64,000 nucleotides of DNA from Dietzia sp. B32 (GTDB taxonomy: Bacteria > Actinomycetota > Actinomycetes > Mycobacteriales > Mycobacteriaceae): the NCBI RefSeq assembly GCF_024732245.1, contig NZ_CP093845.1, positions 2,356,001 through 2,420,000 of the forward strand, in the 5' to 3' direction. Numbering within the stretch: the stretch's first letter is position 1; every line of letters starts with the position of its first letter. Shown piece after piece: positions 43,730-64,000 of the stretch. A program made the translations under genes and the position numbers. The notes beneath the pieces were generated by a model. The model was not told the origin of the DNA, did not search any database, and worked only from the letters and a program-made list of their open reading frames with translations.

Positions 43730-44575
43730 ATGACACGCAGCTCGTACACCCTCGCCATGGCCCAGCCCCTCCGACGTGAAGGCGGCGTGCCCAACGTCGA
43801 CCACGCCGTCCACCTCGTCGCCCGGGCGGCGGCCGAGGGCGCCGATCTGGTCTGCTTCCCCGAGTTCAGCCCCGGCCCCGTCCGCCCGGACGACGAGTTC
43901 TACGACGCTGCCCCGCAGATGACACAGGCGGCGAAGGATCACGGGATCAACGTCGTGTGGTCGCTCACCGAGCCGTGCAACGACGGCGAGCAACGCCTGG
44001 TCGTCTACGTGGTGGGTCGCGAGGGCCAGACCCTCCTGCGCTACGAGCGGACCCACCCCGCGACTATCCCGGTCGCCGAGAGCGGGCTGATCACGCCCGG
44101 CAACGAGTTCGCCAACCTCACGATCGACGGGCTGCCGATGGGCATCGTGGTCTGCTCCGAGATGTGGACCCCGGAGGTGGCCCGGATCGTCGCACTGCGC
44201 GGCGCCGAGATCATCCTGTCCCCGGCCGGCGGTGGGTTCACCAGCCTCACCAGGAACTGGCAGATCATCGTGCAGGCCCGCGCGATCGAGAACCAGTGCT
44301 ACGTCGGCCTGACCAACAACCTGTGGGGCGTCGAACAGGGCGCCGCGATGATCACCGGTCCCGAGCACCCTCTCGCCTTCGCGGGTCGGGACGAGCTGGT
44401 CGTGGCGACGCTCGACCTCGAGCGACTCCGGTGGTTGCGGTCCCACGACGACTCGATGGCCTCGCCCAAGCCCTTCGACTCCATCCCCGGCCTGCTCCGC
44501 GCCCGCCGACCCGAGATGTACGGCGACCTGGTCGCACCCCAGCCCGACGCCTTCGACTACACAGTGGGCTGCTGA
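43730..44575 (+). CDS. Nitrilase-superfamily carbon-nitrogen hydrolase, Arg at the catalytic Lys position
   Basis: 281 residues from ATG 43730. Alpha-beta-beta-alpha sandwich family: Glu45 in CFPEFS and Cys142 in VVCSEMW match two of the Glu-Lys-Cys triad. The Lys motif (YRKTHL-like) reads YERTHP, so position 107 is Arg. Such enzymes hydrolyse amides, nitriles or carbamoyl groups. With Arg the activity could be altered, or another Lys may serve. First gene of the plus operon; the amidohydrolase ATG overlaps its stop. Confidence 0.82.
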   Translation: MTRSSYTLAMAQPLRREGGVPNVDHAVHLVARAAAEGADLVCFPEFSPGPVRPDDEFYDAAPQMTQAAKDHGINVVWSLTEPCNDGEQRLVVYVVGREGQTLLRYERTHPATIPVAESGLITPGNEFANLTIDGLPMGIVVCSEMWTPEVARIVALRGAEIILSPAGGGFTSLTRNWQIIVQARAIENQCYVGLTNNLWGVEQGAAMITGPEHPLAFAGRDELVVATLDLERLRWLRSHDDSMASPKPFDSIPGLLRARRPEMYGDLVAPQPDAFDYTVGC

Positions 44576-45924
44576 TGAGCGCCCAGATCATCCGCGGCGG
44601 GTGGGTGCTCGCGCCGGAGCCGGTCCGCAACGGAGCCGTCGTGGTGGAGAGCGGCGTGATCGTCGCCGTCGGGACCTACGACGAGGTGGTGGCGCAGTTC
44701 CCGGACGCGCCGGTCCACGGCGGGGAGTACGACATCGTCAGCCCCGGGTTCGTCAACACCCACGGACATTTCTCCGAGGGCCTCATCACCGGGATCGCGA
44801 GCCAGTACACGCTGTGGGAGTGGATCGGCGCCCTGATCCGGCCGGTCAGCGCCCACCTGACGCACCGGGCCGCCTACCTGGGCACGATGCTCTCGGCAAT
44901 CCAGATGCTCCGCAGTGGCGTGACCACCGCGAACGACATGTTCGTCTCCGACCCGGGCACGACCGGGCCGATCACACCCGCCGTGGTGGACGCCTGTGAC
45001 GAGCTCGGCCTGCGGGGCGTGCTCTCCTTCGGCGCCGGCGACGAGTGTGGGGCCCGCCCGTTCGGGCCCGCGTTCGACGAACACGAGGCGCTCCGGGAGG
45101 CCGTCGCCGCCAGCCGGCTGCAGACGTTCCGGATGGGCGTCGGCGCGATCGGCGGGCAGAGCGACGAGATGTTCGCCCACTCGGTCGACTACGCGACCGG
45201 CGGCGGCCACGGCGTCCACATGCACATCCAGGAGATCCGGGAGGAAATCACCGCGACCTTCGCCCGCACGGGCCGCACCGTGGTGCAGCACTGCGCGGAG
45301 GAGGGGCTCTTCGCGGCGCCCACCCTGGCCGCGCACTGCGTCTGGGTGGACCGCGCCGACCGGGCGATCCTCGCCGAACACCGGGTGGGCGTGGCCCACA
45401 ACCCCGTCGCCAACATGATCCTCGCCAGCGGCGTGGCACCGGTCGCCGAGATGCGGGAGCTGGGCATCGACGTGGGGATCGGGGTCGACGGCGCCGCCTC
45501 CAACGACTCGCAGGATTTCCTCCAGGCCATGAAGTCGGCCGCGCTCCTGGCGCGGGTCCACCACCAGCAGGCCACCGCCATGAGCGCGAAGGAGGCCTGG
45601 GAGATGGCCACCATCGGTGGCGCGCGCGCTCTTCGGATGGAGGACACCATCGGCTCGCTCGAGGTGGGTAAGAAGGCCGACCTCGTGGTGCTCGACGGCG
45701 ACGACCCCACCCTGGCCAATGTGCACGACCCGTATCAGGCCGTGGTGTTCGTGGCGGGCAGCCGCGAGGTCGACCAGGTGTGGATCGACGGCGTACGGGT
45801 GGTCGACGACGGCGACGTGGTGAACGTCGACCCGCGGGAGATCGCGGCGGAGTCCCGGTCGGTTGCGGCGCGGCTCGTCAGCGACGCCAGCCTGGGGACC
45901 CTGTCAGCGCTGGTGGAGGCCTGA
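44575..45924 (+). CDS. TRZ/ATZ-type amidohydrolase
   Basis: 449 residues; its ATG at 44575 shares a base with the upstream TGA. A zinc amidohydrolase barrel with HGH in NTHGHFSEGL, HMHIQE, AHCVW and the GIGVDGAASNDS metal/active-site region. The family includes chlorohydrolases, guanine/isoxanthopterin/cytosine-type deaminases and 5-methylthioadenosine deaminase. It hydrolyses C-N (or C-Cl) bonds on N-heterocycles in the cytosol. It is closely similar to the amidohydrolase at 58236 (shared HNPVANMILASGV). The exact ring is unknown. Confidence 0.87.
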   Translation: MSAQIIRGGWVLAPEPVRNGAVVVESGVIVAVGTYDEVVAQFPDAPVHGGEYDIVSPGFVNTHGHFSEGLITGIASQYTLWEWIGALIRPVSAHLTHRAAYLGTMLSAIQMLRSGVTTANDMFVSDPGTTGPITPAVVDACDELGLRGVLSFGAGDECGARPFGPAFDEHEALREAVAASRLQTFRMGVGAIGGQSDEMFAHSVDYATGGGHGVHMHIQEIREEITATFARTGRTVVQHCAEEGLFAAPTLAAHCVWVDRADRAILAEHRVGVAHNPVANMILASGVAPVAEMRELGIDVGIGVDGAASNDSQDFLQAMKSAALLARVHHQQATAMSAKEAWEMATIGGARALRMEDTIGSLEVGKKADLVVLDGDDPTLANVHDPYQAVVFVAGSREVDQVWIDGVRVVDDGDVVNVDPREIAAESRSVAARLVSDASLGTLSALVEA

Positions 45925-45925
45925 G

Positions 45926-46867
45926 ATGAACGTCTCGCCGGGCATCGACGAGGTCCACGGGATTCTCATCGACCGACTGCTCACCGGGTATTACCCGGCC
46001 GGGTCGAAGCTGCCCTCGTGCCGCTCCCTGGCGCAGGAGCTGGGCACCAACTCCTCGACGGTCGACCGGGCCATCGGTCGGCTCGCCCGGGCCGGGCGCG
46101 TGCGCACCCTGCCCCGCCGGGGGACCTTCGTCTCCGAGGCCGAGGCCGGCAACGTCGATCCCAAGGCGGTGCTCACCGGGCAGCTCGAGGAGCTGCTCCT
46201 GCGGGCCAGACGCCTGGGGGTCACCGCGGCGGACCTCGACCAGATGGTCCTCTCGACGCTCGAGCGCGTCGACTCGATGCGCCGCATCGCGGTGGTCGAG
46301 TGCAACGAACGCGACCTCCGGCGGGTGCAGGAGATCGTGCAGGAGGCCACCGGGGTCGAGGTGCAGCCCGTGCTGCTCTGCGAGGCCGACGGTCGGGTGC
46401 TCGACGAGGAGTTCGACGCCGTGGCCGTCCCGGTATTCCACCTCAACGACGTCGCCGGGCACGTCAAGGACATGGACCAGGTGGTCGAGCTCAACCTCGT
46501 CGCCTCGCCCGGCACCCTGCGCCGTGTCATCGATGTGCGCGACCGCGAGCGTCTCGTCGTGGTGGCGCCCACGGCCCGTGGGGTGCAGTGGATGACCGCC
46601 CTGATCGGCCAGTACTTCCCCGGCGAGATCGAGGGTGTGGTGTCGGATCCGTCGGAGGGCACCGCCGGCCTCGACTCCGTGGGCGATCTGTCCGACGCCG
46701 TCGTCGTCGTCAACAACGCCGCGGGACTCCCCTACGACCTGGAGGGGCGGGCGGGCCAGCTCATCCCCATCGAGTGGGAGATCGACGGCCGCTTCGCGGC
46801 GTCGCTCAAGACCCGCATCGACAACCTCATCAACTTCCGCATCGCCTGCGGGAAAGGACAACCATGA
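45926..46867 (+). CDS. GntR family transcriptional regulator
   Basis: 313 residues. The N-terminal winged helix (about 1-70) shows the GntR pattern: IDRLLTGYYPAGSKLPSCRSLAQELGTNSSTVDRAIGRLA-type sequence and RRGTFV wing. The C-terminal effector domain (about 110-313) resembles a periplasmic-binding-like or aminotransferase-unrelated sensory fold (RRIAVVECNERDLRR; LIPIEWEIDGRFAASL). It lies inside the operon and probably senses the substrate of the pathway. The next gene overlaps by ATGA. Confidence 0.83.
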   Translation: MNVSPGIDEVHGILIDRLLTGYYPAGSKLPSCRSLAQELGTNSSTVDRAIGRLARAGRVRTLPRRGTFVSEAEAGNVDPKAVLTGQLEELLLRARRLGVTAADLDQMVLSTLERVDSMRRIAVVECNERDLRRVQEIVQEATGVEVQPVLLCEADGRVLDEEFDAVAVPVFHLNDVAGHVKDMDQVVELNLVASPGTLRRVIDVRDRERLVVVAPTARGVQWMTALIGQYFPGEIEGVVSDPSEGTAGLDSVGDLSDAVVVVNNAAGLPYDLEGRAGQLIPIEWEIDGRFAASLKTRIDNLINFRIACGKGQP

Positions 46868-47841
46868 CACTCTCGATAGGCCTGTCGAACTCGGCGCGGA
46901 CCCGGCCGCTCGCGGACGCACGCGTGCCCCTCGACGGGGTGGACGCCGACATCACCCTGATGGGCGTGCAGGCCCTGTTCAACCACCAGATGGCCCACCA
47001 CACCTTCGACGTGTGCGAGTTCCCCATCGCCACCTACCTGCGCAGCTTGGAGGACCCGGAGCAGCCCTACCTGGCGTTCCCGGTGTTCCCGTCACGGCAC
47101 TTCCGGCTGTCCTGCCTCTTCGTCCCGGAGAACAGCGACATCGCCACCCCCGCCGATCTCGCGGGCCGCCGGATCGGCCTGTCGGTGTTCGACATGGCCG
47201 CCGCGGTGTGGCTGCGCGGGATGCTCCAGGACCACTTCGGCCTCGACCGGTTCGCGCCGGTCTACGTGATCGGCGGGCTGGAGGAACCCCGCAACGGGGA
47301 CGAGCACCCGCAGTTCTACCCGCCGGGGTTCACCTTCGAGTTCCGGACCGACGCCAGCCTGGCCGAGCTGCTCGCCGCGGGCGAGATCGATGCAGTGGTG
47401 ACGGCCCGCGCGCCGTCCACCTGGCCGAACGGCGGTGTCCGCCGACTCTTCGAGGACCCACGCGCAGTGGAGACGGAGTACTACCGGAAGACAGGCATCT
47501 TTCCCGCCATGCACATCATGGCCATGAAGCGGCCCCTCGCCGAGGCGAAGCCCGAGCTGCGGGGTGTGCTGTACCGGGCCTTCTGCGAGGCACAGGGAAT
47601 GGCGCGGACCGACCTGTTCGACTCGGCCGCGCTCGACACCATCCTGCCGTGGCAGCTCGAGGACCTCCTCGAGACCGAGCGTGAACTCGGCGCCGACTAC
47701 TGGGCGACCGGACTGGAAGCCAACCGTCTGATGCTCGACACGATCGTCGACTACTCCCTCGCGGACGGACTCATCTCGACCCCCTTCACCCCTGAGCAGC
47801 TCTTCGCCGGACCGGGCGAAGCCGAGATGCTCGCCAGCTAG
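46864..47841 (+). CDS. 4,5-dihydroxyphthalate-decarboxylase-like protein
   Basis: 325 residues without signal peptide or lipobox, so it is not a normal periplasmic binding protein even though it has that fold. The pattern FDVCEFPIATYLRSLED, YLAFPVFPSRHFRLSC and AAAVWLRGMLQDHFGL follows the 4,5-dihydroxyphthalate decarboxylase (Pht5) family closely. These enzymes decarboxylate catechol-type carboxylates. In this operon it sits just before the HpaB-type hydroxylase and may decarboxylate a hydroxylated heteroaromatic acid; that is inference. Confidence 0.7.
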   Translation: MTLSIGLSNSARTRPLADARVPLDGVDADITLMGVQALFNHQMAHHTFDVCEFPIATYLRSLEDPEQPYLAFPVFPSRHFRLSCLFVPENSDIATPADLAGRRIGLSVFDMAAAVWLRGMLQDHFGLDRFAPVYVIGGLEEPRNGDEHPQFYPPGFTFEFRTDASLAELLAAGEIDAVVTARAPSTWPNGGVRRLFEDPRAVETEYYRKTGIFPAMHIMAMKRPLAEAKPELRGVLYRAFCEAQGMARTDLFDSAALDTILPWQLEDLLETERELGADYWATGLEANRLMLDTIVDYSLADGLISTPFTPEQLFAGPGEAEMLAS

Positions 47842-47852
47842 GAGACAGACAC

Positions 47853-49262
47853 ATGCGTACCGGAAACGACTACCTCGCCGCCCTCGACGACGGGCGTGCC
47901 GTCTACGTCGACGGCGAGAAGGTGGCCACCATGGCCGAGCACCCGGCCTTCAGTGGGGTGGTCCGCACCATGGCGTCGGTGTACGACGCCGCCGCGCTTC
48001 CCGACTCGCCGCTCGTGGACCCCGAGACCGGGAACCTCGCGATCTTCACCATCCCGTACACCCGCGAGCAGCACGACCTGCGCAAGCGGTGCCTCGAGGC
48101 GTGGTCGCGGATGACGCACGGATTCATCGGCCGCGGCCCGGACCACGTGGCCGGCCTGCTCGCCGGGTTCGCCTCGAACCCGGCGATGTTCGACACGGAG
48201 GCCCACCAGCTCGGCGAGACCGTGGTGGCCTACCACCGCAAGGCCGCCGCGGAGGGCCTGTGGATCAGCAACTCGATCGTCCCGCCGCAGATGAACATGC
48301 AGGACCCGACGAGTCGCGTGAAGCCGGTCGAACTGGTCGAGGAGACGGACGAGGGCATCTTCGTCCACGGCGCGATGATGCTCGGCACCGGCGCCGCGGT
48401 CGCCGACGGGATCTTCGTCTCGAGCATCCGGCCGCTGGCCCCGACCGAGTCGGACCGGGCGCTGAGCTTCGTGGTGCCCGTCGCGACCGAGGGACTCACG
48501 CTGATCTGTCGCCGCCCCTACGCCACCAGCGGCAGTGACTTCGACTACCCGCTGTCCACGCGGTTCGACGAGACCGACGCGATGGTCACCTTCGACAACG
48601 TGCTCGTGCCGTGGGAGAGCGTCTTCGCCGTCGGCGAGGTCCCGGTGATCAACAACCAGTTCTTCGGCACCGCCGCGCACCAGATCGGCAACCTCCAGTC
48701 GATCATCCGGCTCACCGCCAAGCTGGAGTTCCTCACCGGCGTGGCCAGCCGGATCGTCTCCGCCAACGGTCGCGACTCGGACATGGCGATCAGGGGCCAG
48801 CTCGCCGAACTGTCGACCGTCCACACGGTCTCCAAGGCACTGACCGAGTCCGCGCACGCCTTCGCGGAGCAGGACGAGTTCGGCGTCTATCGGCCCGCCG
48901 GGCAATACCTGTACGCCGCGCTGGGCATGCAGACCGAGGTTTACCCGCGCGCGGTGAAGATGCTCGGCGAGCTCGCCGGCGGTGGCGTGATTCAGGTGCC
49001 GTCCTCCGTCGAGGACTTCTCCGACGAGGCGGAGACCGTGGCGATGGACCTGCTCATGGGCTCCGACCAGCTGCCGGTCCGCGACCGCGTGAAGCTCTTC
49101 AAGCTCGCCTGGGACATGGTCGGCACCGAGTTCGCGGGGCGCCACGTGCAGTACGAGCGCTTCTACTCGGGCTCGGCCCCGGTGGTCCGGGCGCTCGCGC
49201 ACCGCTTCTACCCGTTCGCCGCCGCCGAGGCGTCGGTGGACGAGTTCCTGGGGACCTACTGA
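47853..49262 (+). CDS. HpaB-type FADH2-dependent monooxygenase
   Basis: 469 residues. 4-hydroxyphenylacetate 3-hydroxylase large-subunit family: MRTGNDYLAALDDGRAVYVDG start, a middle domain with MNMQDPTSR, VHGAMMLGTGAAVADGIF, and a C-terminal helical domain (VGTEFAGRHVQYERFYSG). It uses reduced flavin from a partner, here the HpaC-type protein at 54975. The class hydroxylates phenols and, in pyrrole-2-carboxylate and similar pathways, N-heteroaromatics. It follows the decarboxylase-like gene by 11 nt. Confidence 0.9.
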   Translation: MRTGNDYLAALDDGRAVYVDGEKVATMAEHPAFSGVVRTMASVYDAAALPDSPLVDPETGNLAIFTIPYTREQHDLRKRCLEAWSRMTHGFIGRGPDHVAGLLAGFASNPAMFDTEAHQLGETVVAYHRKAAAEGLWISNSIVPPQMNMQDPTSRVKPVELVEETDEGIFVHGAMMLGTGAAVADGIFVSSIRPLAPTESDRALSFVVPVATEGLTLICRRPYATSGSDFDYPLSTRFDETDAMVTFDNVLVPWESVFAVGEVPVINNQFFGTAAHQIGNLQSIIRLTAKLEFLTGVASRIVSANGRDSDMAIRGQLAELSTVHTVSKALTESAHAFAEQDEFGVYRPAGQYLYAALGMQTEVYPRAVKMLGELAGGGVIQVPSSVEDFSDEAETVAMDLLMGSDQLPVRDRVKLFKLAWDMVGTEFAGRHVQYERFYSGSAPVVRALAHRFYPFAAAEASVDEFLGTY

Positions 49263-49263
49263 C

Positions 49264-50421
49264 ATGGCGACTCTCGAGGGCGTCCGGGTCGCGGTGAAGG
49301 ACCTGTTCGACGTGGCGGACATGGTGACGGGGGCCGGCAACCCGACGCTGGCCGCCGGCCCGCCCGCCACCCGCGACGCGGCAGTCGTGGCCGCGCTCCG
49401 CGCCGCCGGGGCGCAGGTGGTGGCGAAGGTCGCGACCGACGAGCTCGCGATGGGCATGTTCGGCGTCAACTCCCACTACGGGACCCCGGCCAACCCGGCT
49501 GCACCTGATCGCGTCCCGGGCGGCTCGTCGAGCGGGTCCGCGTCCGCGGTGGCCGCCGGCGACGCCGACCTGGGTCTGGGCACCGACACCGGCGGGTCGA
49601 TCCGCGTACCCGCCTCCTTCTGCGGGCTCGTGGGGCTGCGGCCGACCCACGGGCGGATCAGCCTCGAGGGCGTACGACCGATGGCCCCCGGTTTCGACAC
49701 CGTGGGGCTCCTCGCCGCCGACGTGTCCGGCGTGGCGGACGCGTTCGACACCCTGATCGGGCCGGCTGCCGTGCCCGCCCCCGGATCCGCCGCCGTCCCC
49801 GCCAGCGCGCCCATCACCGAGCCCGCTGCCGGTCCCCGCGAGGTCACGGACCTGGTGCTGCTCACTGACCTGGTCGACCGCGCCGAGCCCGCCGTCGCGG
49901 AGCGGACCCGGGAATGCGCGCGGGCGTGGGCGGACCAGCTCGGCCTCGGCCTGAGGGAGGCAGGCCTGGCCGCGGGCGAGGCCCTGGTCGAGATCTTCTG
50001 GCCGCTGATGAGCCGGCAGCTGTGGGAGAGCAACGGGGCGTGGGTGGAGACGGAGAATCCGGTCCTCGGCGAGGGGATCGCCGAGCGCATCGCCGCCGCC
50101 GGCCTGACCGGTGACGGCGAAGTGGCGGCGGCCGAGCAGGCACGCGCGGAGTTGCGCTCCCGCCTGGCCGAGCTCCTCGACGGTGCCATCGCCGTGCTGC
50201 CCACGACCATCGACGTGGCGCCGCTGCGGACCTCGACGCACGCCGACCTCATGGCCTTCCGGGACCGCAACCTGGCTCTCATCGTGCCGGCCTCGCTTTG
50301 CGGTGCGCCGCAGCTCACCCTGCCGGTCGGGCAGGACCGGGGTGCGCCGTTCGGAGTGTCCCTGCTGGGCCTACCGGACGACGACGAGCTGCTGTTGGCG
50401 ACCGCGGGAGGTGTGCTGTGA
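49264..50421 (+). CDS. Amidase-signature family amidase (first copy)
   Basis: 385 residues from ATG 49264, 1 nt after the monooxygenase stop. The Ser-cisSer-Lys triad is present: Lys12 in VAVKDLFDV, cis-Ser88 in PGGSSSGSA and nucleophile Ser112 in DTGGSIRVP. It is shorter than the usual 450-500 because the N-terminal helices are missing. It hydrolyses a primary or small amide. Unrelated in detail to the second amidase at 51305 beyond the signature. Confidence 0.88.
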   Translation: MATLEGVRVAVKDLFDVADMVTGAGNPTLAAGPPATRDAAVVAALRAAGAQVVAKVATDELAMGMFGVNSHYGTPANPAAPDRVPGGSSSGSASAVAAGDADLGLGTDTGGSIRVPASFCGLVGLRPTHGRISLEGVRPMAPGFDTVGLLAADVSGVADAFDTLIGPAAVPAPGSAAVPASAPITEPAAGPREVTDLVLLTDLVDRAEPAVAERTRECARAWADQLGLGLREAGLAAGEALVEIFWPLMSRQLWESNGAWVETENPVLGEGIAERIAAAGLTGDGEVAAAEQARAELRSRLAELLDGAIAVLPTTIDVAPLRTSTHADLMAFRDRNLALIVPASLCGAPQLTLPVGQDRGAPFGVSLLGLPDDDELLLATAGGVL

Positions 50422-51308
50422 GCGAGAGAACGACCCGGTCGGAGAGGGCAGCGCCGACCCCCTTCCGCCTGAGCACCCAGGCGCCCGTCCTTGACCCCCT
50501 CGACGGTGCGTCGCTCCTGGTCAACGTCGTGCTCAACCTCGAGCACTGGACCCTCGACCGCCCGATGCCGCGGGCCGCCCTGCCCGCCCCGCACGGGCTG
50601 ACGGTGGTCCCGGACGTCGCCAACCACTCGTGGGTGCTCTACGGCCTCCGGGTCGGGCTGCCGCGGATGGCCAGGGCACTCGAACCGCTCGGCACCGCGG
50701 TCACCGTGGCCCTCAACGCGGACGTGATCGACCACTACCCGCAGGTCGCCGACCTGATCGCCGAGCGCGGCTGGGACGTGGTGGCCCACGGGGTCCGGCA
50801 GCAGTCCATCCAGTCCTACGACGCCGAGGAGCCCGTGATCACCGAGACCCTCGCGCGGATCACGGAACGGTTCGGCGCCCCTCGCGGTTGGTTGAGCCCT
50901 GGCATGAACCAGACCGACGACTCGCTGACCCTCATGACGCGGGCCGGGCTGGGGTTCAACCACGACTGGATGATCGACGACCGCCCGGTCTGGCTCAGCA
51001 CGGAGGCGGGACCGATCGTCGGGCTGCCCTACACGCTGACCCTCAACGACGTGACCACCTATCAGGTCGGACTCCAGGCCGACGGTGCCCTCGCCGATCG
51101 CGTCGAGCGGAGCCTGGCGGTGCACGCCGTGGAGGCCGCCGAGAACCCCCTGGTCATGCCCATCGGTCTGCACCCGCACATCATGGGCGTGCCCCACCGG
51201 ATCGCCGAGATCGAGCGGATCGTCGACGCGATCACCCGGACCCCCGGGGCCGCAGCAGTGACCTCCGGGCAGATCTACGACTGGTTCACCGGGCAGGTGC
51301 CGTCATGA
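50418..51308 (+). CDS. Polysaccharide-deacetylase (PuuE-like) family hydrolase (first copy)
   Basis: 296 residues from GTG 50418, overlapping the amidase stop. CE4/NodB-fold pattern: VALNADVIDHYPQVADLIAERGWDVVAHG, LTETLARITERFG-type helix, RGWLSPGMNQTDDSL and IGLHPHIMG with two His residues. This sub-family includes allantoinase PuuE rather than chitin deacetylases, which fits a nitrogen-compound pathway. No signal peptide, so it acts in the cytosol. It overlaps the next amidase gene by ATGA. Confidence 0.78.
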   Translation: MSERTTRSERAAPTPFRLSTQAPVLDPLDGASLLVNVVLNLEHWTLDRPMPRAALPAPHGLTVVPDVANHSWVLYGLRVGLPRMARALEPLGTAVTVALNADVIDHYPQVADLIAERGWDVVAHGVRQQSIQSYDAEEPVITETLARITERFGAPRGWLSPGMNQTDDSLTLMTRAGLGFNHDWMIDDRPVWLSTEAGPIVGLPYTLTLNDVTTYQVGLQADGALADRVERSLAVHAVEAAENPLVMPIGLHPHIMGVPHRIAEIERIVDAITRTPGAAAVTSGQIYDWFTGQVPS

Positions 51309-52480
51309 GCGTCACCGTGAGCCTGGCCGAGCGGGACGCCGAGCTGCGCGCGTTCACCCACATCGCAGAGCCTCCGCCGGTGGATGACGCAGTACCGGTC
51401 GGGCCCCTCGCCGGCCTGCCGGTCGCGGTCAAGGAGATCATCGACGTGGCTGGGATGCCCGTCACCTACGGCTCCCCGCTGTTCGCCGATCGGGTCCCCG
51501 ACACGGACGCCGAGGCGGTGCGCCGGCTCAAGGCCGCCGGCGCGGTGATCGCGGGTATGACCACCACGACGCCCTTCGCCTGCGGTACGACCACCGTCAC
51601 CCGCAACCCGCACCGGCTCACGCACACGCCCGGCGGCAGCTCCGCCGGCTCAGGAGCAGCGGTCGGCGGCGGGTTGGTCCCGGTCGCCCTGGCCAGCCAG
51701 AGCCAGGCCTCCACCCTGCGCCCGGCCTCCTACTGCGGGGCGTGGGGCTACAAGCCGAGCCACCTGCGCCTCCCGCGCGCCGGGATGCACCTGCTCTCCG
51801 ACACCCTGGACGATCTGGGCCTCGTGGCCGCCGACCTCGACGTGCTCGAGAAGGTCCTGGCGGTCCTCGCCGACGACTGGCGGCCGGAGGCGACCCCTCG
51901 GACACTGCGGGTCGGGCTGGTCCGGCTCGACGACGGTGATCTGCCCCGCCCGGAGACCCTCCGCGCCCTCGAGGAGCTCGTGCAGCGCCTCGACGGCGAC
52001 GGGATCTCGTTCGTCCGCACCGACGGACTGCGCGACCTCGACGAGCAGGTGGACGGCTCGGGACTGTCGTGCTTCGACATCTTCGCCGGTGAGAGCGCCA
52101 CCGTCCTGGCGGAGTACGTCGCGGCGGGTGAGCCCGATCCCCGCCTGCGCGAGATGGTGGACCATGCCGACCCGTCCCGCCTGGTCCGCGCGCTGCAGCA
52201 CCGGGCGGCGTTGGTGACGGCGTACCGGGTGGCCACCGTCGCTGTCGACGTGCTGCTCACGCTGTCCACCACGAACCCCGCCCCCGGGGGCCTGGAGTCG
52301 ACCGGGTGCCGCCGGATGCCGGCCACGTCGTCGCTGCTCGGCGTCCCGGCGCTGTCGGCGCCGTGGCTCACCGTCGACGGCCTTCCGCAGGGCGTGCAGC
52401 TCCTGGGACGCCCGGGCGGGGACGAGCGACTGGTCGCGGCCGCGCGGGCGCTCGCCGCGCGCGAGGAGGAGACGCGATGA
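51305..52480 (+). CDS. Amidase-signature family amidase (second copy)
   Basis: 391 residues from ATG 51305. Triad residues Lys43 (VAVKEIIDV), cis-Ser112 (PGGSSAGSG) and nucleophile Ser136 (QASTLRPASYCG; the usual DTGGS stretch is QSQAS). The protein also has a C-terminal half with LSTTNPAPGGLESTG. A different substrate from the first amidase is likely. It is followed by a second deacetylase-type gene with ATGA overlap. Confidence 0.87.
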   Translation: MSVTVSLAERDAELRAFTHIAEPPPVDDAVPVGPLAGLPVAVKEIIDVAGMPVTYGSPLFADRVPDTDAEAVRRLKAAGAVIAGMTTTTPFACGTTTVTRNPHRLTHTPGGSSAGSGAAVGGGLVPVALASQSQASTLRPASYCGAWGYKPSHLRLPRAGMHLLSDTLDDLGLVAADLDVLEKVLAVLADDWRPEATPRTLRVGLVRLDDGDLPRPETLRALEELVQRLDGDGISFVRTDGLRDLDEQVDGSGLSCFDIFAGESATVLAEYVAAGEPDPRLREMVDHADPSRLVRALQHRAALVTAYRVATVAVDVLLTLSTTNPAPGGLESTGCRRMPATSSLLGVPALSAPWLTVDGLPQGVQLLGRPGGDERLVAAARALAAREEETR

Positions 52481-53412
52481 CGACGACGACCCCTTCGAGC
52501 TCGACCGGATCCGGTCATCCCGGGACCGAACCGCGCGATCTCCGCGGCTACGGACCCGACCGGCCGGACCCGCGGTGGCCGGGCGGGGCCAGGCTGGCCC
52601 TGACGATCGTGGTCAACTGCGAGGAGGGGGCCGAGTACGCCGTCGGTGACGGCGCAGCCCGCAGCGAGTCCCCGCTCACCGACGCGGCGGATGCCGGGGC
52701 GGATGTCCCAGGCCGCGACCTGGCGGCCGAGTCGATGATGGCCTACGGCAGCAGGGTCGGCTTCTGGCGGATCCACCACCTGCTCACCGAGCGGGGGATC
52801 CCGGCCACCGCCTCGGCCTGCGCCCTGGCGTTCGAGCGGGTGCCCGAGATCGCCGCGGCCGCGCGGGATGCCGGGTGGGGCCTCCTCGGGCACGGCTACG
52901 GCTTCACCAAGGCCTACCTGATGGACGAGGACGCCGAGCGCGCGGAGATCGTGCGGGCCCTGGCCTCCTTCGAGCGCACCTGGGGCAGCGCCCCGACCGG
53001 GTGGTACTGCCGCTACGGCCCGTCGCTCGCGACCCGCCGGCTGCTGGTGGAGGCGGGGTTGTCCTATGACAGCAACGCCTACGACGACGACCTGCCCTAT
53101 TGGACCCGGGTCGACGGTCGACCGCACCTGGTGGTGCCGCACACCTTCTCGGCGAACGACAACAAGTACGCCAAGGGCTGGTGGTCCACCTCCGACGACG
53201 CCGTCACCTACCTACGGGACACCTTCGACGTGCTCTACGCCGAGGGCGGGCAGCTCATGACCGTCTCGCTCCACCCGCGGCTGTCCGGTCACCCGGCACG
53301 CTCCGCCGGGGTGGCCCGGTTCCTCGACCACGTCCTGGCCCACGACGACGTGTGGATCACGACCCGGCCCGAGGTGGCCGAGCACTGGGCGCGGGTGCAT
53401 CCCCATGGGTGA
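52477..53412 (+). CDS. Polysaccharide-deacetylase (PuuE-like) family hydrolase (second copy)
   Basis: 311 residues from ATG 52477. CE4 pattern: LTIVVNCEEGAEYAVGDG (Asp/Glu site), YGSRVGFWRIHHLLTERGIPATASAC, WGLLGHGYGF, WYCRYGPS and VSLHPRLSGHPARS. Closer to bacterial allantoinase PuuE than the first copy, by the YGSRVG(V/F)WR string. It would open a hydantoin-like ring or a related cyclic amide. Ends by overlapping the amidohydrolase start. Confidence 0.82.
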   Translation: MTTTTPSSSTGSGHPGTEPRDLRGYGPDRPDPRWPGGARLALTIVVNCEEGAEYAVGDGAARSESPLTDAADAGADVPGRDLAAESMMAYGSRVGFWRIHHLLTERGIPATASACALAFERVPEIAAAARDAGWGLLGHGYGFTKAYLMDEDAERAEIVRALASFERTWGSAPTGWYCRYGPSLATRRLLVEAGLSYDSNAYDDDLPYWTRVDGRPHLVVPHTFSANDNKYAKGWWSTSDDAVTYLRDTFDVLYAEGGQLMTVSLHPRLSGHPARSAGVARFLDHVLAHDDVWITTRPEVAEHWARVHPHG

Positions 53413-54868
53413 CCTGCTCATCACCGGGGCGCTCGTGATGAGCGGCCCCGAGTGGCGGCCGACGCCCCTCGACCTGCTGATCCGCGACGGCCGCATCGCC
53501 GCGACGGCCGCACCGGGGAGTCTCGGCGGCCGGGGCGTGGCGACCTGGGAGGCGGACGGGCGACTGATCCTGCCGGGCCTGGTCAACGCCCACACCCACT
53601 CGCACGCGATGGTCGCCCGCGGTGCCGCCCGGTACTGGACGCTCGAGGCGTCGTTGCTGCACGGGGGCTGGATGTCCGCACCCCGGTCCGCGGAGCTCGC
53701 CGAGCTGAGCGCGGTCCTGGCCGCCACCGAGATGATCGCGACCGGCGCGACCGGTGCCTTCGACCTCTCCGCCCAGGCCGGGGGCCCCGATGTGGCGACC
53801 CTGGTGGCGACGGCCCGCGGCTACCAGCGTGTGGGTCTGCGGACGGTCATCGCCCCGATGGTGGCCGACCGGACCGTGTACGAGGCGGTACCGGCGATCG
53901 GGGAGTGCTGTGGAGTGCCCGCGGCGACCGGACTCGGTGCGGCGGAGATCGTCGACCGGTGCGCCGAGTTCGCCGCCGCCGTCGCCGACCCCGCCGCCGG
54001 TCTCGGACTCATCACTCCCGCCGTCGCTCCGACCATCCCGACCCACTGCACCACCGGGCTCGTGCGGTCGTTGCACGGGCTGGGGCTACGGATGCAGGTC
54101 CATCTGGCGGAGTCGCGGCCCCAGGCGAGAGCCGGCAGGGAGCGGTTCGGTCATTCGCTCACCGCCGAGCTCGCACGGACCGGGGTGCTGGACGAGAGGT
54201 TCACCGGCGCCCACGCGATCTGGCTCGATGATGAGGACCGGGCGCTGCTGGCACAAGCGGGAGCGGTGGTGGTCGCGGTACCGGGCAGTAACCTGCGCCT
54301 CGGCTCGGGCCTGGCCGACACGCCCTCGGCGTGGGCGGCCGGACTGCAGGTGGCGGTGGGCACCGACGGCGCCAACTCGGCCGACGCCCTGGACGTCCTG
54401 GACGCCGCCCGCCTGACCCTGCTGCTCCCGCGGCTGATGGAGGCGGATCCCGCCCGGTGGCCGCGAATCGAGCAGGTCCTCGACGCGGCCACGACGGGAG
54501 GGGCCGCGGCCTGCGGGTGGAGCGACGTCGGGCGGATCGAACCCGGGCACGCCGCCGACCTCATCGCGCTGGACCTGGCGTCGAGCGCCTTCACCCCGGC
54601 CCACGACCTGCCGCACCAGGTCCTGTCCGCGGCGCGGGCAGGCGACGTGACCGACGTGATGATCGCCGGCCGGCACGTCTACCGCGACAGACGGTTCCCC
54701 CATCTCGACGTGGCCTCGCTGCGCAGACGCTTCACCGAGCTCGTGTCCGAGTGGGGCGTCGGAGCCGAGCCCGCGCGGCAGACGGCGGAGAAGGATGTCG
54801 CGGCTGCCCGGGACGTGATCACGAGACTGCGTTCGGGGACGGAGACCCGGTCAGTGACTGACACCTGA
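53405..54868 (+). CDS. Amidohydrolase family protein (TRZ/ATZ-like)
   Basis: 487 residues. Metal-site motifs NAHTHSHAMVARG, the MQVHLAESRPQARAG segment, AHAIWLDDED and VGTDGANSADALDV. The C-terminus has IEPGHAADLIALDLA typical of dihydroorotase/chlorohydrolase-type proteins. It is more divergent than the two close paralogues at 44575 and 58236. A 60-residue tail after the barrel (ETRSVTDT end) has no clear domain. A 15-bp repeat array follows the stop. Confidence 0.83.
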   Translation: MGDLLITGALVMSGPEWRPTPLDLLIRDGRIAATAAPGSLGGRGVATWEADGRLILPGLVNAHTHSHAMVARGAARYWTLEASLLHGGWMSAPRSAELAELSAVLAATEMIATGATGAFDLSAQAGGPDVATLVATARGYQRVGLRTVIAPMVADRTVYEAVPAIGECCGVPAATGLGAAEIVDRCAEFAAAVADPAAGLGLITPAVAPTIPTHCTTGLVRSLHGLGLRMQVHLAESRPQARAGRERFGHSLTAELARTGVLDERFTGAHAIWLDDEDRALLAQAGAVVVAVPGSNLRLGSGLADTPSAWAAGLQVAVGTDGANSADALDVLDAARLTLLLPRLMEADPARWPRIEQVLDAATTGGAAACGWSDVGRIEPGHAADLIALDLASSAFTPAHDLPHQVLSAARAGDVTDVMIAGRHVYRDRRFPHLDVASLRRRFTELVSEWGVGAEPARQTAEKDVAAARDVITRLRSGTETRSVTDT

Positions 54869-54870
54869 GC

Positions 54871-55592: not shown

Positions 55593-55600
55593 GAGACAGG

Positions 55601-55634
55601 ACGAGGCCCGCCGGCGATGACCGGCGGGCCTCGT
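55601..55634. terminator. Bidirectional terminator between the two catabolic operons
   Basis: Perfect 14-bp arms (55601-55614 and 55621-55634) with a 6-nt loop, serving both convergent operons. Confidence 0.9.
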
Positions 55635-55710
55635 GGTCTGTCGAGTCGTGGTGTGCCGGGGAACGGTCGCGCGGCAGGGGCAGATCAGGACGTCGGCGCG
55701 CCGCGAGTGC

Positions 55711-56676
55711 TCAGCGCGCGAGGAGCACGGCGTGGGGGAGCGGGTGCCCCGTCCGCTCGACCGAGGAGAACCCGGCGGCCAGGAGCAGGTCGATCAGCTC
55801 CTCGACCCGGCGCGCCCGGCCGGGGGTCTCGACCCGCATCATCAGGTCGAACATCGGCCCGAATGCCTCGAGATCACCCTCTCCCGGGTCACCGGGGAGC
55901 TCGAACACGATCACCGTGCCGCCCTCGCGGACGACCTCACGGGCCAGGCGCAGGAGCCGGAGGGCGATGTCGTCGTAGTCGTGCAACAGGTGGCTGACCA
56001 GGGCGACGTCGGCGGATCCGGGTCCCAGCGCGGCGAGGGCGCCGGGACCGGTCAGGTCCACGGCCTCGACGGTGATCCCCGGCGCGGCTGCGAGCTCCTC
56101 GCCGGCCCACTCGGCCACCGCGGGCAGGTCGATCAGGCGGACCTCCGCACCGGCCCGGGCCAGGGGGACGGCGTAGGACCCGAGCCCGCCGCCCAGGTCG
56201 ACGACCCGCGCGCCGGGCTCGACCAGCGCGGCGAGGTCGGGGCCGGTCTCGGTGGCCAGCACCACCAGGGCGCGAAGGAAGTCGCGGCACTGGTCGGGAT
56301 CAGTGACCAGGCGCTCCTCCCACGCGGCGATGCGGGGTCGCCCGGTGCGGACGGTGTCTGCCAGGTCGAGCCATGCGCGGGCGAAGAACGCCTCCTTCTC
56401 GGCGACCGGGCGCAGGTCGCCGGCGGATCCCAGGCGGGCGCTGAGCGCGGTGGCCGCGTATCGCGAGTCCATCCGCTCCAGCAGGCCGAGCCCGACGAGG
56501 GAGTCCAGCAGGGACAGGGTCCCCCCGGGATCGGTGCCGAGCGCGGTGGCGATCTGGCCGGCCGTCGCGGGCACGCCTGCGGTGAGGTCGAAGATCCCCA
56601 GCCGGCTCGCAGCGGTGAGCGCGGCGGCGGCCTGGTAGCCGGTCAGCAGATCGATTGCGCCGAGTGCCGTGGTCAT
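55711..56676 (-). CDS. SAM-dependent O-methyltransferase
   Basis: 321 residues from ATG 56676, which overlaps the upstream stop (ATGA). An N-terminal winged-helix dimerisation domain (about 1-95; AAALTAASRLGIFDLTAG) precedes the class I methyltransferase domain with RVVDLGGGLGSYAVPLARAG (SAM site), VEAVDLTGPG, and VALVSHLLHDYDD. This is the plant-COMT/acetylserotonin O-methyltransferase-type family. Methylation is not an obvious degradation step, so it may act on a hydroxylated intermediate or an unrelated compound. Last gene of the minus operon. Confidence 0.83.
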   Translation of the reverse strand: MTTALGAIDLLTGYQAAAALTAASRLGIFDLTAGVPATAGQIATALGTDPGGTLSLLDSLVGLGLLERMDSRYAATALSARLGSAGDLRPVAEKEAFFARAWLDLADTVRTGRPRIAAWEERLVTDPDQCRDFLRALVVLATETGPDLAALVEPGARVVDLGGGLGSYAVPLARAGAEVRLIDLPAVAEWAGEELAAAPGITVEAVDLTGPGALAALGPGSADVALVSHLLHDYDDIALRLLRLAREVVREGGTVIVFELPGDPGEGDLEAFGPMFDLMMRVETPGRARRVEELIDLLLAAGFSSVERTGHPLPHAVLLAR

Positions 56677-62380: not shown

Positions 62381-63432
62381 CCCTCGGCCCACTCGTCGAT
62401 CGCCGCCGCGAGGCGGGCGGTCAGCTCGGGCAACCCCAGCGGGGTGTCGTGGCCGTCGCCCCGGGCGAACACCGCTCGCACCGAGGCGGGGGCGCTCGAG
62501 CGTCCCTCCGCGGCGAGACGGTCGGCGAGCTCCGCGCGGGAGGCGTCGATGTCCTCCCGGAGCGGCAGCATGCGCACCGCGTCGGGGCCCAGCGTGTCGA
62601 GCGCGCCCCGCAGGGGGAGGTCGCCGGAGACGCCCGCGCGGGAGTGCGGCAGCCCGTCGGCGTCACGGAACGCGGCGTCGGCCAGGAAACTCCGGTGGGT
62701 CAGACCCGGGGAGGTCCAGGAGCCGATCACGTCGTAGTACCGACCGATCCGTCCGAGGACGGCGGCGATCGCGTCCGCCATGGCGTTGTGCATCTCCACG
62801 TAGGCCTCACGCTCGGCGGGACCCCACGGCTCCTTGGCCCGGCGCTCGAACAGACCCGGGTCGTCGTAGGAGGTCGCGGGGGACTGGCTCCCGCGGAACT
62901 CCATGGTCAGCTCGTAGGGGACCACCGCCATCGGCTCGGAGAGGACGAACCGGTCCAGCACCACCCCGTCGCGGACGAGCGGGGAGTTGGCGAACAGGTC
63001 CGGGCTCTCGTCGGGCTCCAGCAGGTCGAGGAGCTCGGCGGGGCCGTCGAAGGGGCGCAGCGGCTTCCAGCCGGAGGTCAGCAGCGCGGAGTTGATGCCC
63101 CGGTGCTCCCGGCTGGTGAAGTACGGCTTGTACTTCGTGCACGGCAACAGCAGCCCGAGCCGGCGCCGGGCCCCCTCGACGGGGGTCGGCGTCCACTCGT
63201 CGCGGATCGCGGCGTGCCACTCGACGAGCCGCGGGTTCGCCAGGCTCGCGACGTTGGCCTGCGGGGTGTAGAGGCACAGCTCCGGGTCGAGCACATACGG
63301 CGTGCGGATCTTCCGGGCGGAGGACCGCAGTAGGGCCTCCGCCGCGGCGTCGTCGTCGACCTCCACCGTGACCGCGTCCGCGGTCACCTCGATGACCGTG
63401 GCGGCGGGGGACGTCGTCAGGGTGCCGGTCAC
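62377..63432 (-). CDS. DUF5591 (archaeosine-synthase-like) domain protein
   Basis: 351 residues from GTG 63432, overlapping the binding protein's stop. The block LLLPCTKYKPYFTSREHRG, Cys98 and His110, and the later FVLSEPMAVVPYELTMEF with SPATSYD about 80 residues on, match the catalytic core pattern of archaeosine synthase ArcS (PCS-x-KPY-x-x-S-x-x-H; VPxELE; YD). No tRNA-binding PUA domain is seen. The family has not been placed in catabolic operons as far as I know. Its role here is unknown: amidine/nitrile-type chemistry on a ring would be one idea. Confidence 0.5.
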   Translation of the reverse strand: MTGTLTTSPAATVIEVTADAVTVEVDDDAAAEALLRSSARKIRTPYVLDPELCLYTPQANVASLANPRLVEWHAAIRDEWTPTPVEGARRRLGLLLPCTKYKPYFTSREHRGINSALLTSGWKPLRPFDGPAELLDLLEPDESPDLFANSPLVRDGVVLDRFVLSEPMAVVPYELTMEFRGSQSPATSYDDPGLFERRAKEPWGPAEREAYVEMHNAMADAIAAVLGRIGRYYDVIGSWTSPGLTHRSFLADAAFRDADGLPHSRAGVSGDLPLRGALDTLGPDAVRMLPLREDIDASRAELADRLAAEGRSSAPASVRAVFARGDGHDTPLGLPELTARLAAAIDEWAEG

Positions 63433-64000
63433 TTGTCGGTCCCCTCGAGGCTGATCGAGGTGTCGAGGAACTGGTTGGTGACGAGGTCCTCCGGGGTGAT
63501 GCCGGAGACGTCGACCGGGCCGTACTCGTCGACGATGTCGATGAGGCTCTGGACGCGGTCGAGGTCGAACTGGCCGGTGATGCCCTCGGCGCTGTCACCG
63601 AGGATGCCCAGCTCGACGCCGGTGTCGTGGGCGAACTCGCCGCCCTCGAGGGTGTAGACCCAGCCGGTGTCGTACTCGCTGACCAGCTCGACGATCAGGT
63701 CGTTGGTGGCCTCCGGGTCCGTGATGTAGTTGTTCTGCGCCTTCTGCATGATCGGCACCAGTGCGGAGAGGCACTCGGCCTGGGCGGTGACGTCCTCAGA
63801 GCGGACGGTGAGCGCCTGGAAGTACTCCTCGTACCCGGTGTCGTGGATGAGCTGGCCCTCGACCGGCTTGCCCCACTCCGGGATCTCGACCTCGTACATG
63901 AACGGCTCCGCGGTGATGAAGCCGGCCTCGGCCAGCTCGCCGCCGGCGGCGACGAACATGGCCGGCTTGTTCTGGTCGCTCAGGTCGAGCTGCTCGCGCT
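63429..64000 (-). CDS. ABC transporter substrate-binding protein, NMT1/THI5-SsuA-like (5' end cut by window edge)
   Basis: The C-terminal about 190 residues are visible, and the frame is open to base 64000, so the start lies beyond it. The pattern NKPAMFVAAGGELAEAGFIT, YFQALTVRSEDVTAQAECLS and PIMQKAQNNYITDPEATND fits the SsuA/THI5-type periplasmic binding proteins for small N- or S-containing compounds. It would import the pathway's substrate; the permease and ATPase genes are presumably outside the window. First visible gene of the minus operon. Confidence 0.8.
   Translation of the reverse strand, partial: REQLDLSDQNKPAMFVAAGGELAEAGFITAEPFMYEVEIPEWGKPVEGQLIHDTGYEEYFQALTVRSEDVTAQAECLSALVPIMQKAQNNYITDPEATNDLIVELVSEYDTGWVYTLEGGEFAHDTGVELGILGDSAEGITGQFDLDRVQSLIDIVDEYGPVDVSGITPEDLVTNQFLDTSISLEGTDK

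What the first reader, a model, noticed from the sequence alone, without database searches (positions are those of the whole stretch)
43730..64000. Two convergent operons forming a large, unassigned C-N bond-breaking catabolic locus
Seen: three amidohydrolases, two amidases, two PuuE-like deacetylases, a nitrilase-family protein, HpaB/HpaC-type monooxygenase pair, a dihydroxyphthalate-decarboxylase-like protein, aminotransferase, aldehyde dehydrogenase, CrtI-like oxidase, O-methyltransferase, GntR regulator and a THI5/SsuA-like binding protein. Known: HpaB-type enzymes plus amidohydrolases act in N-heteroaromatic breakdown (for example pyrrole-2-carboxylate), and PuuE opens cyclic ureides. Inference: sequential decarboxylation, hydroxylation and repeated C-N hydrolysis of one N-rich ring compound, ending in a semialdehyde. 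I cannot match the whole set to a named pathway.
Basis: partly seen in the sequence, partly recalled or inferred. Interest (0 to 1): 0.72.

Follow-up and report, generated by a model that had tools for sequence, protein, structure and literature searches.

The report
Conserved purine-like ring breakdown gene cluster

Summary
Window 43730-64000 carries two tightly packed convergent operons with the listed enzymes. All 16 family members scanned hit the ArcS models at E <= 0.1 (best 6.5e-11).

The two operons are one unit. Their order (42518 to window-equivalent 66389) is kept in Mycolicibacterium, and a common promoter element precedes both operons in both genera. The core (ArcS-like, dihydroxyphthalate-decarboxylase-like, HpaB-like, amidase; usually PuuE-like, amidohydrolase, flavin monooxygenase) recurs in most of 27 other genomes or records, mainly Alphaproteobacteria. 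Among 397 genomes of one order, the ArcS-like gene and this decarboxylase-like subfamily occur in the same 8.

Best reading: nitrogen-scavenging catabolism of a purine-like N-heterocycle. Purine-breakdown genes lie near the ArcS-like gene in 17 of 27. My leading, unproven candidate is a 7-deazaguanine (preQ0/preQ1/queuine type).

No substrate is shown. The ArcS similarity is confined to short motifs, no fold match was found, and the window amidohydrolases lack the guanine-deaminase glutamine.

The parts
42518..43600 (-). AbrB-type membrane protein, divergent from the + operon; edge of the conserved block
   Evidence: TIGR03082 190.5 bits vs cut-off 94.7; 63% identical syntenic copy in Mycolicibacterium L044; synteny stops beyond it
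43620..43658 (+). shared promoter element CTGTCCCNCTGTCCC-N6-TGTAACA-N5-GGAACA upstream of the + operon; a second copy of its first part (to TGTAACA) lies upstream of the ABC operon at window-equivalent 66472-66499 (-)
   Evidence: 0 hits in 100-200 shuffles, but the pattern was derived from these sites; also upstream of both operons in Mycolicibacterium; contains an exact match to the M. smegmatis GlnR consensus of PMC3662644
43730..44575 (+). carbon-nitrogen hydrolase (nitrilase superfamily, amidase-like)
   Evidence: PF00795 102 bits
44575..45924 (+). amidohydrolase AH1, AHS subtype III type, HxHxxE in place of HxHxxQ
   Evidence: PF01979 205 bits; alignment; 45% identical to AH3
45926..46867 (+). 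GntR-family regulator
   Evidence: PF00392 54 bits
46864..47841 (+). 4,5-dihydroxyphthalate-decarboxylase-like protein ('THI5' in the tables)
   Evidence: alignment A3 hits 9jp7 at 3.6e-77; 50-72% identical to 13 relatives
47853..49262 (+). HpaB-like FADH2-dependent monooxygenase
   Evidence: PF11794/PF03241; TIGR02309 278 bits, below the equivalog cut-off; best PDB relatives are HpaB-type hydroxylases
49264..50421 (+). amidase-signature enzyme 1 (core)
   Evidence: PF01425 230 bits
50418..51308 (+). PuuE-like hydrolase 1 (divergent)
   Evidence: TIGR03212 78.5 bits vs cut-off 424.6; no Pfam hit
51305..52480 (+). amidase-signature enzyme 2
   Evidence: PF01425 202 bits
52477..53412 (+). PuuE-like hydrolase 2 (core)
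   Evidence: TIGR03212 299 bits vs cut-off 424.6; PuuE allantoinase 3cl6 5.4e-71
53405..54868 (+). amidohydrolase AH2 (core)
   Evidence: PF01979 134 bits
54975..55556 (+). flavin reductase, presumed partner of the monooxygenase
   Evidence: PF01613 114 bits
55592..55643 (.). hairpin between the convergent operons, probably a bidirectional terminator
   Evidence: inverted repeat, 83% over 23-base arms; -40.8 kcal/mol; the terminator scan, which needs a T-tract, finds none here
55711..56676 (-). O-methyltransferase-like protein
   Evidence: PF00891 56 bits
56673..58205 (-). CrtI-like flavin oxidoreductase
   Evidence: PF01593 68 bits
58236..59723 (-). amidohydrolase AH3, paralogue of AH1
   Evidence: PF01979 197 bits
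59668..60996 (-). class III aminotransferase
   Evidence: PF00202 361 bits
60965..62392 (-). aldehyde dehydrogenase
   Evidence: PF00171 366 bits
62377..63432 (-).
   Evidence: 16 of 16 family members hit PF17884 (best 1.9e-9) and NF040592/NF053620 (best 6.5e-11, 3e-9) at E <= 0.1; AF2 model pLDDT 87.7
63429..64000 (-). ABC substrate-binding protein, 3' part; continues to window-equivalent 64586, followed upstream by permease (64669-65652) and ATPase (65649-66389)
   Evidence: L002; 64% identical in Mycolicibacterium

Best explanation
The two operons form one sporadically distributed, co-regulated catabolic unit that imports a purine-like N-heterocycle through its own ABC transporter and takes it apart for nitrogen. 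The HpaB-like monooxygenase (with the flavin reductase) puts a hydroxyl on the ring; the decarboxylase-like protein removes a ring carboxyl; the amidohydrolases deaminate or open rings; the PuuE-like enzymes and amidases cut the resulting cyclic and open amides; the aminotransferase and dehydrogenase handle an amine/aldehyde side chain. The ArcS-like protein works on the substituent or base that ArcS-type domains recognise. The leading candidate substrate is a 7-substituted 7-deazaguanine (preQ0, preQ1 or queuine type). For that substrate, oxidation of an aminomethyl group by the aminotransferase and dehydrogenase would give the 7-carboxy form, HpaB-type hydroxylation would occur on the pyrrole ring next to it, and decarboxylation would follow. 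Shown: gene content, conservation, coupling, shared promoter, purine context. Inferred: every reaction, their order and the substrate. My estimate is about 0.85 for catabolism of some N-heterocycle, 0.5 for a purine-like one and 0.25 for a 7-deazaguanine.
For: Same order of both operons in Mycolicibacterium, 59-81% identity for the 20 shared genes, with synteny ending at AbrB and at the ABC ATPase. Shared promoter element at both operon heads in two genera, containing at the + operon an exact match to the published GlnR consensus. Core in the 27 other D5591 genomes or records: decarboxylase-like 24, HpaB-like 23, amidase 1 23, FMO 21, AH2 20, PuuE2 18. In one order the decarboxylase-like subfamily (582-609 bits) and D5591 occur in the same 8 of 397 genomes; 28 further genomes have only family members of 336 bits or less. 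ArcS/DUF5591 homology in 16 of 16 members with motif order kept against AF0587; among 14 control genomes DUF5591 rings only in three archaea. Purine context: 8-oxoguanine-deaminase-type gene at the locus in 12 of 27 by tblastn, over the curated cut-off in 4 of 4 proteins tested and within about 10 kb of D5591 in 6 of 10 genomes searched besides the own one (D5591 or HpaB places); ureidoglycolate-lyase-type gene in 5 of 27; D5591 about 3-9 kb from a set of urate-pathway genes in G603; with overlap removed, 17 of 27. In the window genome a transporter with 42, 50 and 57% identity to the cluster's three components lies in a cluster with 8-oxoguanine deaminase, allantoinase, urease and XdhC, with an FMO relative.
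Against: The ArcS similarity is limited to short motifs: Pfam covers 27 residues of the window protein, whose own ArcS scores are only E 0.002 and 0.00067, and AF0587 is found at E 0.0017-0.0033. Foldseek gave no significant fold match in PDB or BFVD, and 2q07 is not among the 50 PDB rows shown of 255. The window amidohydrolases carry E, A and E where guanine-type deaminases have Q, so they are not guanine deaminases by that rule. The three other actinobacterial loci (Mycolicibacterium, Frankia MAG, Ilumatobacter MAG) show no 8-oxoguanine deaminase at the cluster. No preQ1 or purine riboswitch at 40000-64000 of the window or in the 15 loci L008-L022 (later loci not searched). Three loci (G603, G681, Ilumatobacter MAG) have D5591 without HpaB or the decarboxylase. 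Loci were mostly chosen by D5591 and many are close relatives, so counts are not independent. The promoter pattern was derived from the sites it was then searched with. The window lacks the FMO gene in its operon, although 21 of 27 have one; its nearest relative lies in the purine cluster.
Confidence: 0.5

Rival explanations
1. The substrate is a monocyclic N-heteroaromatic acid (pyrrole- or pyridine-carboxylate type): HpaB-type hydroxylation, decarboxylation, hydrolytic ring opening.
For: HpaB-like plus flavin reductase plus Pht5-like decarboxylase suit ring acids; a flavin monooxygenase followed by a hypothetical amidohydrolase assigned to oxidative ring opening is described for 4-hydroxypyridine (PMC7356986, abstract and section list read).
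Against: Does not explain the ArcS-like gene, the purine genes near it in 17 of 27 loci or the transporter related to that of the purine cluster.
Confidence: 0.22
2. The substrate is a pterin or folate fragment (for example pterin-6-carboxylate), deaminated, hydroxylated, ring-contracted and decarboxylated to xanthine, which feeds urate catabolism.
For: Would need deaminase, hydroxylase and decarboxylase and would join purine genes; the pathway outline is recalled, not looked up.
Against: No specific homology: the putative cytosine/guanine deaminase 2paj, which I recall as isoxanthopterin deaminase, is only 9th of 13 PDB relatives of AH1 and last of 11 for AH2 (AH3 not searched); ArcS homology points to deazaguanines.
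Confidence: 0.13
3. The cluster is biosynthetic or tailoring (ArcS joins an amine to a nitrile; O-methyltransferase and CrtI-like oxidase decorate a product).
For: O-methyltransferase, CrtI-like protein and aminotransferase are present; ArcS transfers lysine to preQ0 (PMC11298593, start of abstract in the search listing).
Against: Many hydrolases, an ABC transporter with a binding protein, and a nitrogen-control-like promoter; O-methyltransferase and CrtI-like genes were found in only 1 of 27 other genomes or records, Mycolicibacterium (the Frankia MAG contig ends in the dehydrogenase gene, so it cannot be judged).
Confidence: 0.1

Closest known systems
Archaeosine synthase ArcS (NF040592, NF053620; DUF5591 PF17884)
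   Same: Motifs PCTxxKPYxxSxxH, SxPLxxVPxE and YDxP in the same order as in AF0587 (the last two score too low to count alone); all 16 members hit the ArcS models at E <= 0.1
   Different: Far below the equivalog cut-offs (window protein 18 vs 600 and 17 vs 440 bits); bacterial, beside catabolic genes; no fold match found
4,5-dihydroxyphthalate decarboxylase (9jp7)
   Same: Full-length homology, E 3.6e-77
   Different: Separate subfamily tied to D5591 (582-609 bits versus 336 or less for other family members among 397 genomes)
HpaBC-type two-component flavin monooxygenases
   Same: HpaB_N and HpaB domains, flavin reductase gene in the same operon
   Different: Below the HpaB/HpaC equivalog cut-offs; substrate unknown
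Urate/allantoin catabolism (PuuE, allantoicase, ureidoglycolate lyase)
   Same: PuuE homology; relatives share neighbourhoods with urate and 8-oxoguanine deaminase genes
   Different: No urate oxidase, HIUase or OHCU decarboxylase family was hit among the 19 window proteins scanned; HpaB-, decarboxylase- and ArcS-like steps are not part of it (recalled)
Riboflavin (lumichrome) catabolism, lum genes (PMC12746152, abstract and section list read)
   Same: Hydrolytic breakdown of a fused pyrimidine ring plus a heterocycle decarboxylation
   Different: Uses P450, thiamin-dependent decarboxylase, Rieske dioxygenase; no such family was hit among the 19 window proteins scanned

Membership tests
ArcS / DUF5591 | score over the family cut-off | tested here: inconclusive
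   DUF5591 24.4 bits vs 26 for the window protein alone, 27.1 with its neighbours in the frame; the two ArcS equivalog cut-offs are clearly not met by the window protein
ArcS / DUF5591 | signature motifs in order | tested here: met
   invariant P97 C98 T99 K102 P103 Y104 S107 H110, S165 P167 V171 P172 E174, Y189 D190 P192 in alignment A2, aligned in this order to AF0587, the second stretch at insignificant score
ArcS / DUF5591 | same fold as AF0587 (2q07) | tested here: inconclusive
   no significant Foldseek match; 2q07 not in the 50 rows shown of 255
ArcS / DUF5591 | acts on 7-cyano-7-deazaguanine with lysine | not testable with these tools
   needs enzyme assay
4,5-dihydroxyphthalate decarboxylase | full-length sequence homology | tested here: met
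   profile positions 3-311 of 318 aligned to 9jp7, E 3.6e-77
4,5-dihydroxyphthalate decarboxylase | acts on 4,5-dihydroxyphthalate | not testable with these tools
   needs enzyme assay; a separate subfamily by score
HpaBC 4-hydroxyphenylacetate 3-monooxygenase | equivalog cut-offs of HpaB and HpaC | tested here: not met
   278 vs 480 bits; 65 vs 206 bits
PuuE allantoinase | TIGR03212 cut-off | tested here: not met
   299 and 78.5 vs 424.6 bits
Guanine/8-oxoguanine deaminase | family cut-off NF006055 | tested here: not met
   AH1 243, AH3 245, AH2 155 vs 532 bits; met by neighbours in the four alphaproteobacterial loci tested
Guanine/8-oxoguanine deaminase | glutamine after strand 1 (read here as HxHxxQ) | tested here: not met
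   HGHFSE, HTHLSE, HTHSHA in the window; HHHFFQ or HHHLYQ in the three 8-oxoguanine-deaminase-type proteins aligned (rule from PMC12828455; its placement in the HxH motif is my reading)
GlnR nitrogen regulon | Gn2AC-n6-GnAACA site at the promoter | tested here: inconclusive
   two exact sites in the window, one inside and one at the edge of the gap between the AbrB and C-N hydrolase genes; 0.74 expected in 64 kb, 17 of 100 shuffles reach two; at the ABC operon 1 mismatch, no more than chance (10 found, 8.0 expected in 18 kb)
Pyrrole-2-carboxylate degradation | orthologous monooxygenase and amidohydrolase | not tested
   no paper found; reference sequences not at hand

The most novel reading that the evidence does not exclude
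This is a bacterial pathway that eats 7-deazaguanines (preQ0, preQ1, queuine or archaeosine base), the modified purines of tRNA and DNA, with an ArcS-core domain moved from tRNA modification into small-molecule catabolism as a step coupled to a Pht5-type decarboxylase.
Probability: 0.25. Interest if true: 0.87.

Novelty: new variant of a known kind. Interest (0 to 1): 0.64.

Why it matters
A multi-step pathway shared by scattered Actinobacteria and Alphaproteobacteria, one copy on a Rhizobium plasmid with five of seven core genes annotated 'hypothetical', has no assigned substrate. The ArcS-like gene gives a concrete, testable lead. If the substrate is a 7-deazaguanine, it would show where queuine and preQ0 go in the environment, a supply that animals and many bacteria depend on (recalled). 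Even if not, it is a tightly defined gene set (about 7 core genes) for an unassigned N-heterocycle pathway and a second setting for the ArcS-core domain.

Tried and rejected
Rejected: true HpaBC, PuuE or 8-oxoguanine deaminase identity for the window proteins. Rejected: control by a known riboswitch in the stretches searched (only a glycine riboswitch at the far end of L008, outside the cluster). Rejected: identity with the lumichrome pathway.

Led nowhere: Foldseek of the ArcS-like model against PDB and BFVD (weak uracil-DNA-glycosylase rows in BFVD at E 0.73 and 5.7 are not evidence). A ring-contraction route from a 7-deaza-urate to a carbamoyl-asparagine was thought through and dropped because the ring atoms do not fit. 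A 7-base spacer in the promoter pattern gave no match; the spacer is 6. Regions L037 and L038 were fetched from another contig of G301 than the cluster and left out of the tables. Plasmid search with the ArcS-like protein gave one record.

Not done: no archaeal ArcS sequences could be fetched for a profile-profile test; no tree; one structure job and one Foldseek job left unused; PHROGs and PADLOC were not scanned; queuosine genes were not searched for; no control set of random genes was used for the purine-neighbour count.

Dropped before counts: the window genome is not counted; matches covering under 45% of a query were dropped, so split matches can be missed; 'present' means anywhere in the stretch fetched, which ranges from 8 to 59 kb per genome. 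Four of the 27 have under 16 kb of sequence (G305, G152, AlphaMAG, Ilumatobacter MAG), and the G1090 contig ends at the decarboxylase-like gene. 'FMO' counts the first or second FMO-like gene alike. 'AH2' at 27-33% identity in the Acetobacterales-type genomes is a loose call. The pairing of L009 with G152 and of L016 with G1090 rests on equal contig lengths.

Full report
OBSERVATION. The window is G000:C1:2356001-2420000 of a 3.73 Mb single-contig genome; it shares its class with a genome whose contig matches a Frankia MAG, so it is an actinobacterium. The + operon runs 43730-55556: C-N hydrolase, amidohydrolase AH1, GntR, dihydroxyphthalate-decarboxylase-like protein, HpaB-like monooxygenase, amidase 1, PuuE-like 1, amidase 2, PuuE-like 2, amidohydrolase AH2, flavin reductase. 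The - operon, read from its start, is ABC ATPase, permease, binding protein (start outside the window), then the unlisted gene 62377-63432, aldehyde dehydrogenase, class III aminotransferase, AH3, CrtI-like oxidoreductase and O-methyltransferase. The two meet at a hairpin at 55592-55643.

THE MISSED GENE. 62377-63432 gives a weak DUF5591 hit alone (24.4 bits, E 3e-5, cut-off 26; 27.1 bits with its neighbours). With 15 relatives aligned (A2), all 16 members hit DUF5591 (best 1.9e-9) and both archaeosine synthase models (best 6.5e-11 and 3e-9) at E <= 0.1; the only other families listed were single-member hits at E 0.05-0.1. The profile finds AF0587 (2q07) as the only PDB chain that matters, E 0.0017 with 16 and 0.0033 with 28 sequences, with two further motifs in the same order at insignificant score. 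Among 14 control genomes DUF5591 rings in three, all archaea. ArcS transfers lysine to 7-cyano-7-deazaguanine in archaeal tRNA (PMC11298593: start of abstract in the listing; a passage search found only one line of its reference list). An AlphaFold2 model of good confidence (pLDDT 87.7) found no significant fold match in PDB or BFVD. I take homology to the ArcS core as likely and shared chemistry as open.

ONE UNIT. A scan of one genome per species found 15 loci. Searches of whole genomes found the gene in 2 of 296 of the class, the window genome being one of the two; in 3 of 385, 9 of 395 and 8 of 397 in three draws around alphaproteobacterial genomes, each draw including its centre, which has the gene by choice; and in 1 of 23 of the own genus, which is the window genome itself. 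It is therefore sporadic, as expected of a horizontally spread trait; one copy sits on a Rhizobium plasmid. In Mycolicibacterium austroafricanum both operons are kept in the same order, 59-81% identical, with one extra FMO gene between amidase 2 and PuuE-like 2 and no flavin reductase at E <= 1e-10; the synteny begins at the AbrB gene and ends at the ABC ATPase, and the flanking reading frames tested have no counterpart at E <= 1e-8. Across 27 other genomes or records with the gene, the decarboxylase-like gene is at the locus in 24, HpaB-like 23, amidase 1 23, FMO 21, AH2 20, PuuE2 18; AH1, AH3, amidase 2, C-N hydrolase, O-methyltransferase, CrtI-like and the window-type aminotransferase in 1 (Mycolicibacterium). 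These counts start from D5591 and include close relatives. A check from the other side is cleaner: the decarboxylase-like profile, run on the same 397 genomes, gives 582-609 bits in exactly the 8 genomes that have D5591; 28 more genomes have family members, all of 336 bits or less (4 of these 8 loci contributed to the profile).

CO-REGULATION. Upstream of both operons in the window genome and in Mycolicibacterium lies the same element, CTGTCCCNCTGTCCC-N6-TGTAACA followed after 25-26 bases by GTAAA, and a looser one before the ABC operon of the Frankia MAG. The four sites have 0 or 1 mismatch, and no shuffle has one (100-200 shuffles), but the pattern was read off these sites. TGTAACA occurs only twice in 76 kb of this genome, at these two places. 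The M. smegmatis GlnR consensus Gn2AC-n6-GnAACA (PMC3662644, passages read) has two exact matches in the window against 0.74 expected (17 of 100 shuffles reach two), but both lie inside or at the edge of the gap between the AbrB and C-N hydrolase genes; at the ABC operon the match has one mismatch, which is common by chance (10 found, 8.0 expected in 18 kb). Nitrogen control is a good lead, not a proof.

PURINE CONTEXT. In the alphaproteobacterial loci the neighbouring amidohydrolase is a curated 8-oxoguanine deaminase (600-618 bits against 532) in 4 of 4 proteins tested. A whole-genome search put an over-cut-off copy within about 10 kb of D5591 in 6 of 10 genomes besides the own one; three have it only on other contigs, Mycolicibacterium has none. 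By tblastn 12 of 27 loci have this gene and 5 a ureidoglycolate-lyase-type gene. In G603 the ArcS-like gene lies about 3-9 kb from a xanthine/uracil permease, ureidoglycolate lyase, allantoicase, PuuE-OHCU decarboxylase fusion, HIUase and urate oxidase, but there HpaB and the decarboxylase are missing. Together 17 of 27. The window genome has a separate purine cluster at 1.434-1.472 Mb with urease, 8-oxoguanine deaminase (625 bits), allantoinase (522 bits against 358) and XdhC; it holds an FMO (43-44% to core FMOs) and an ABC transporter related to the window's (42, 50, 57%). No control set was run for how often such genes lie near unrelated genes.

MECHANISM. From the families, not from assays: import; hydroxylation by the HpaB-like enzyme; decarboxylation by the Pht5-like enzyme; deamination or ring opening by AHS subtype III proteins, which keep the residues invariant in the alignment with true deaminases, including the HxH pair, a later H, E, H and D; ureide and amide cleavage by the PuuE-like enzymes, amidases and C-N hydrolase; amine-to-acid oxidation by the aminotransferase and dehydrogenase. 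A 7-substituted 7-deazaguanine could use each class, and it is the only ligand type known to me for the ArcS core. Against this, the window amidohydrolases lack the glutamine that the guanine-deaminase group uses (PMC12828455, section 4 and part 1 of section 5 read; alignment), and no preQ1 or purine riboswitch was found in the stretches searched. Queuosine protein genes were not searched for.

NOVELTY. No Pfam or NCBIfam model names the pathway. Literature searches (open-licence PMC library only, lists capped at 10-15 papers) showed no paper on deazaguanine catabolism or on a bacterial ArcS-core protein in catabolism; N2,N2-dimethylguanine hydrolases (PMC13054789, title, abstract start and passages) show that modified guanines can be amidohydrolase substrates. 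I file it as a new variant of a known kind (N-heterocycle catabolic cluster), with a bolder reading at probability 0.25.

Noticed in passing
L087 and L088 (G000:C1:1434000-1472000): Separate purine/allantoin cluster in the same genome with urease, 8-oxoguanine deaminase, allantoinase, XdhC, a 2OG-Fe(II) oxygenase, an FMO and an ABC transporter related to that of the finding.
   Followed up: partly
L031/L032 (G603:C3:752000-790000): ArcS-like gene about 3-9 kb from a set of urate degradation genes, without HpaB or the decarboxylase-like gene.
   Followed up: partly
L033:12678-14514: ArcS-like gene directly behind a cytidine-deaminase-fold protein (PF00383, 39.5 bits), without the other core genes; a second, perhaps simpler, setting for the family.
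   Followed up: no
L089 (CP021373.1, Rhizobium sp. ACO-34A plasmid): Plasmid-borne copy of the pathway with asparaginase and 8-oxoguanine deaminase; five of seven core genes annotated 'hypothetical protein'.
   Followed up: partly
41700-42497: Phosphorylase-superfamily (nucleosidase-type, PF01048) gene just outside the conserved block; no counterpart seen in the Mycolicibacterium flank.
   Followed up: no
40168-41225: CrcB-type (PF02537) gene at 40800-41225 behind an ORF that reads like a second CrcB protein (by eye).
   Followed up: no
43720-43735 and window-equivalent 66384-66399: TGTCA-N6-TGACA palindrome at the start codons of both operons in this genome, nowhere else in 76 kb (spacers 2-9 searched) and not in L008 or L044; may be the GntR operator or a -10/start feature of leaderless mRNAs.
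   Followed up: partly
L002:8677-17263: Beyond the cluster edge, by eye only: an old-yellow-enzyme-like and a molybdenum-cofactor-like gene, then an oligopeptide-type ABC transporter operon (two permeases, two ATPases, binding protein).
   Followed up: no
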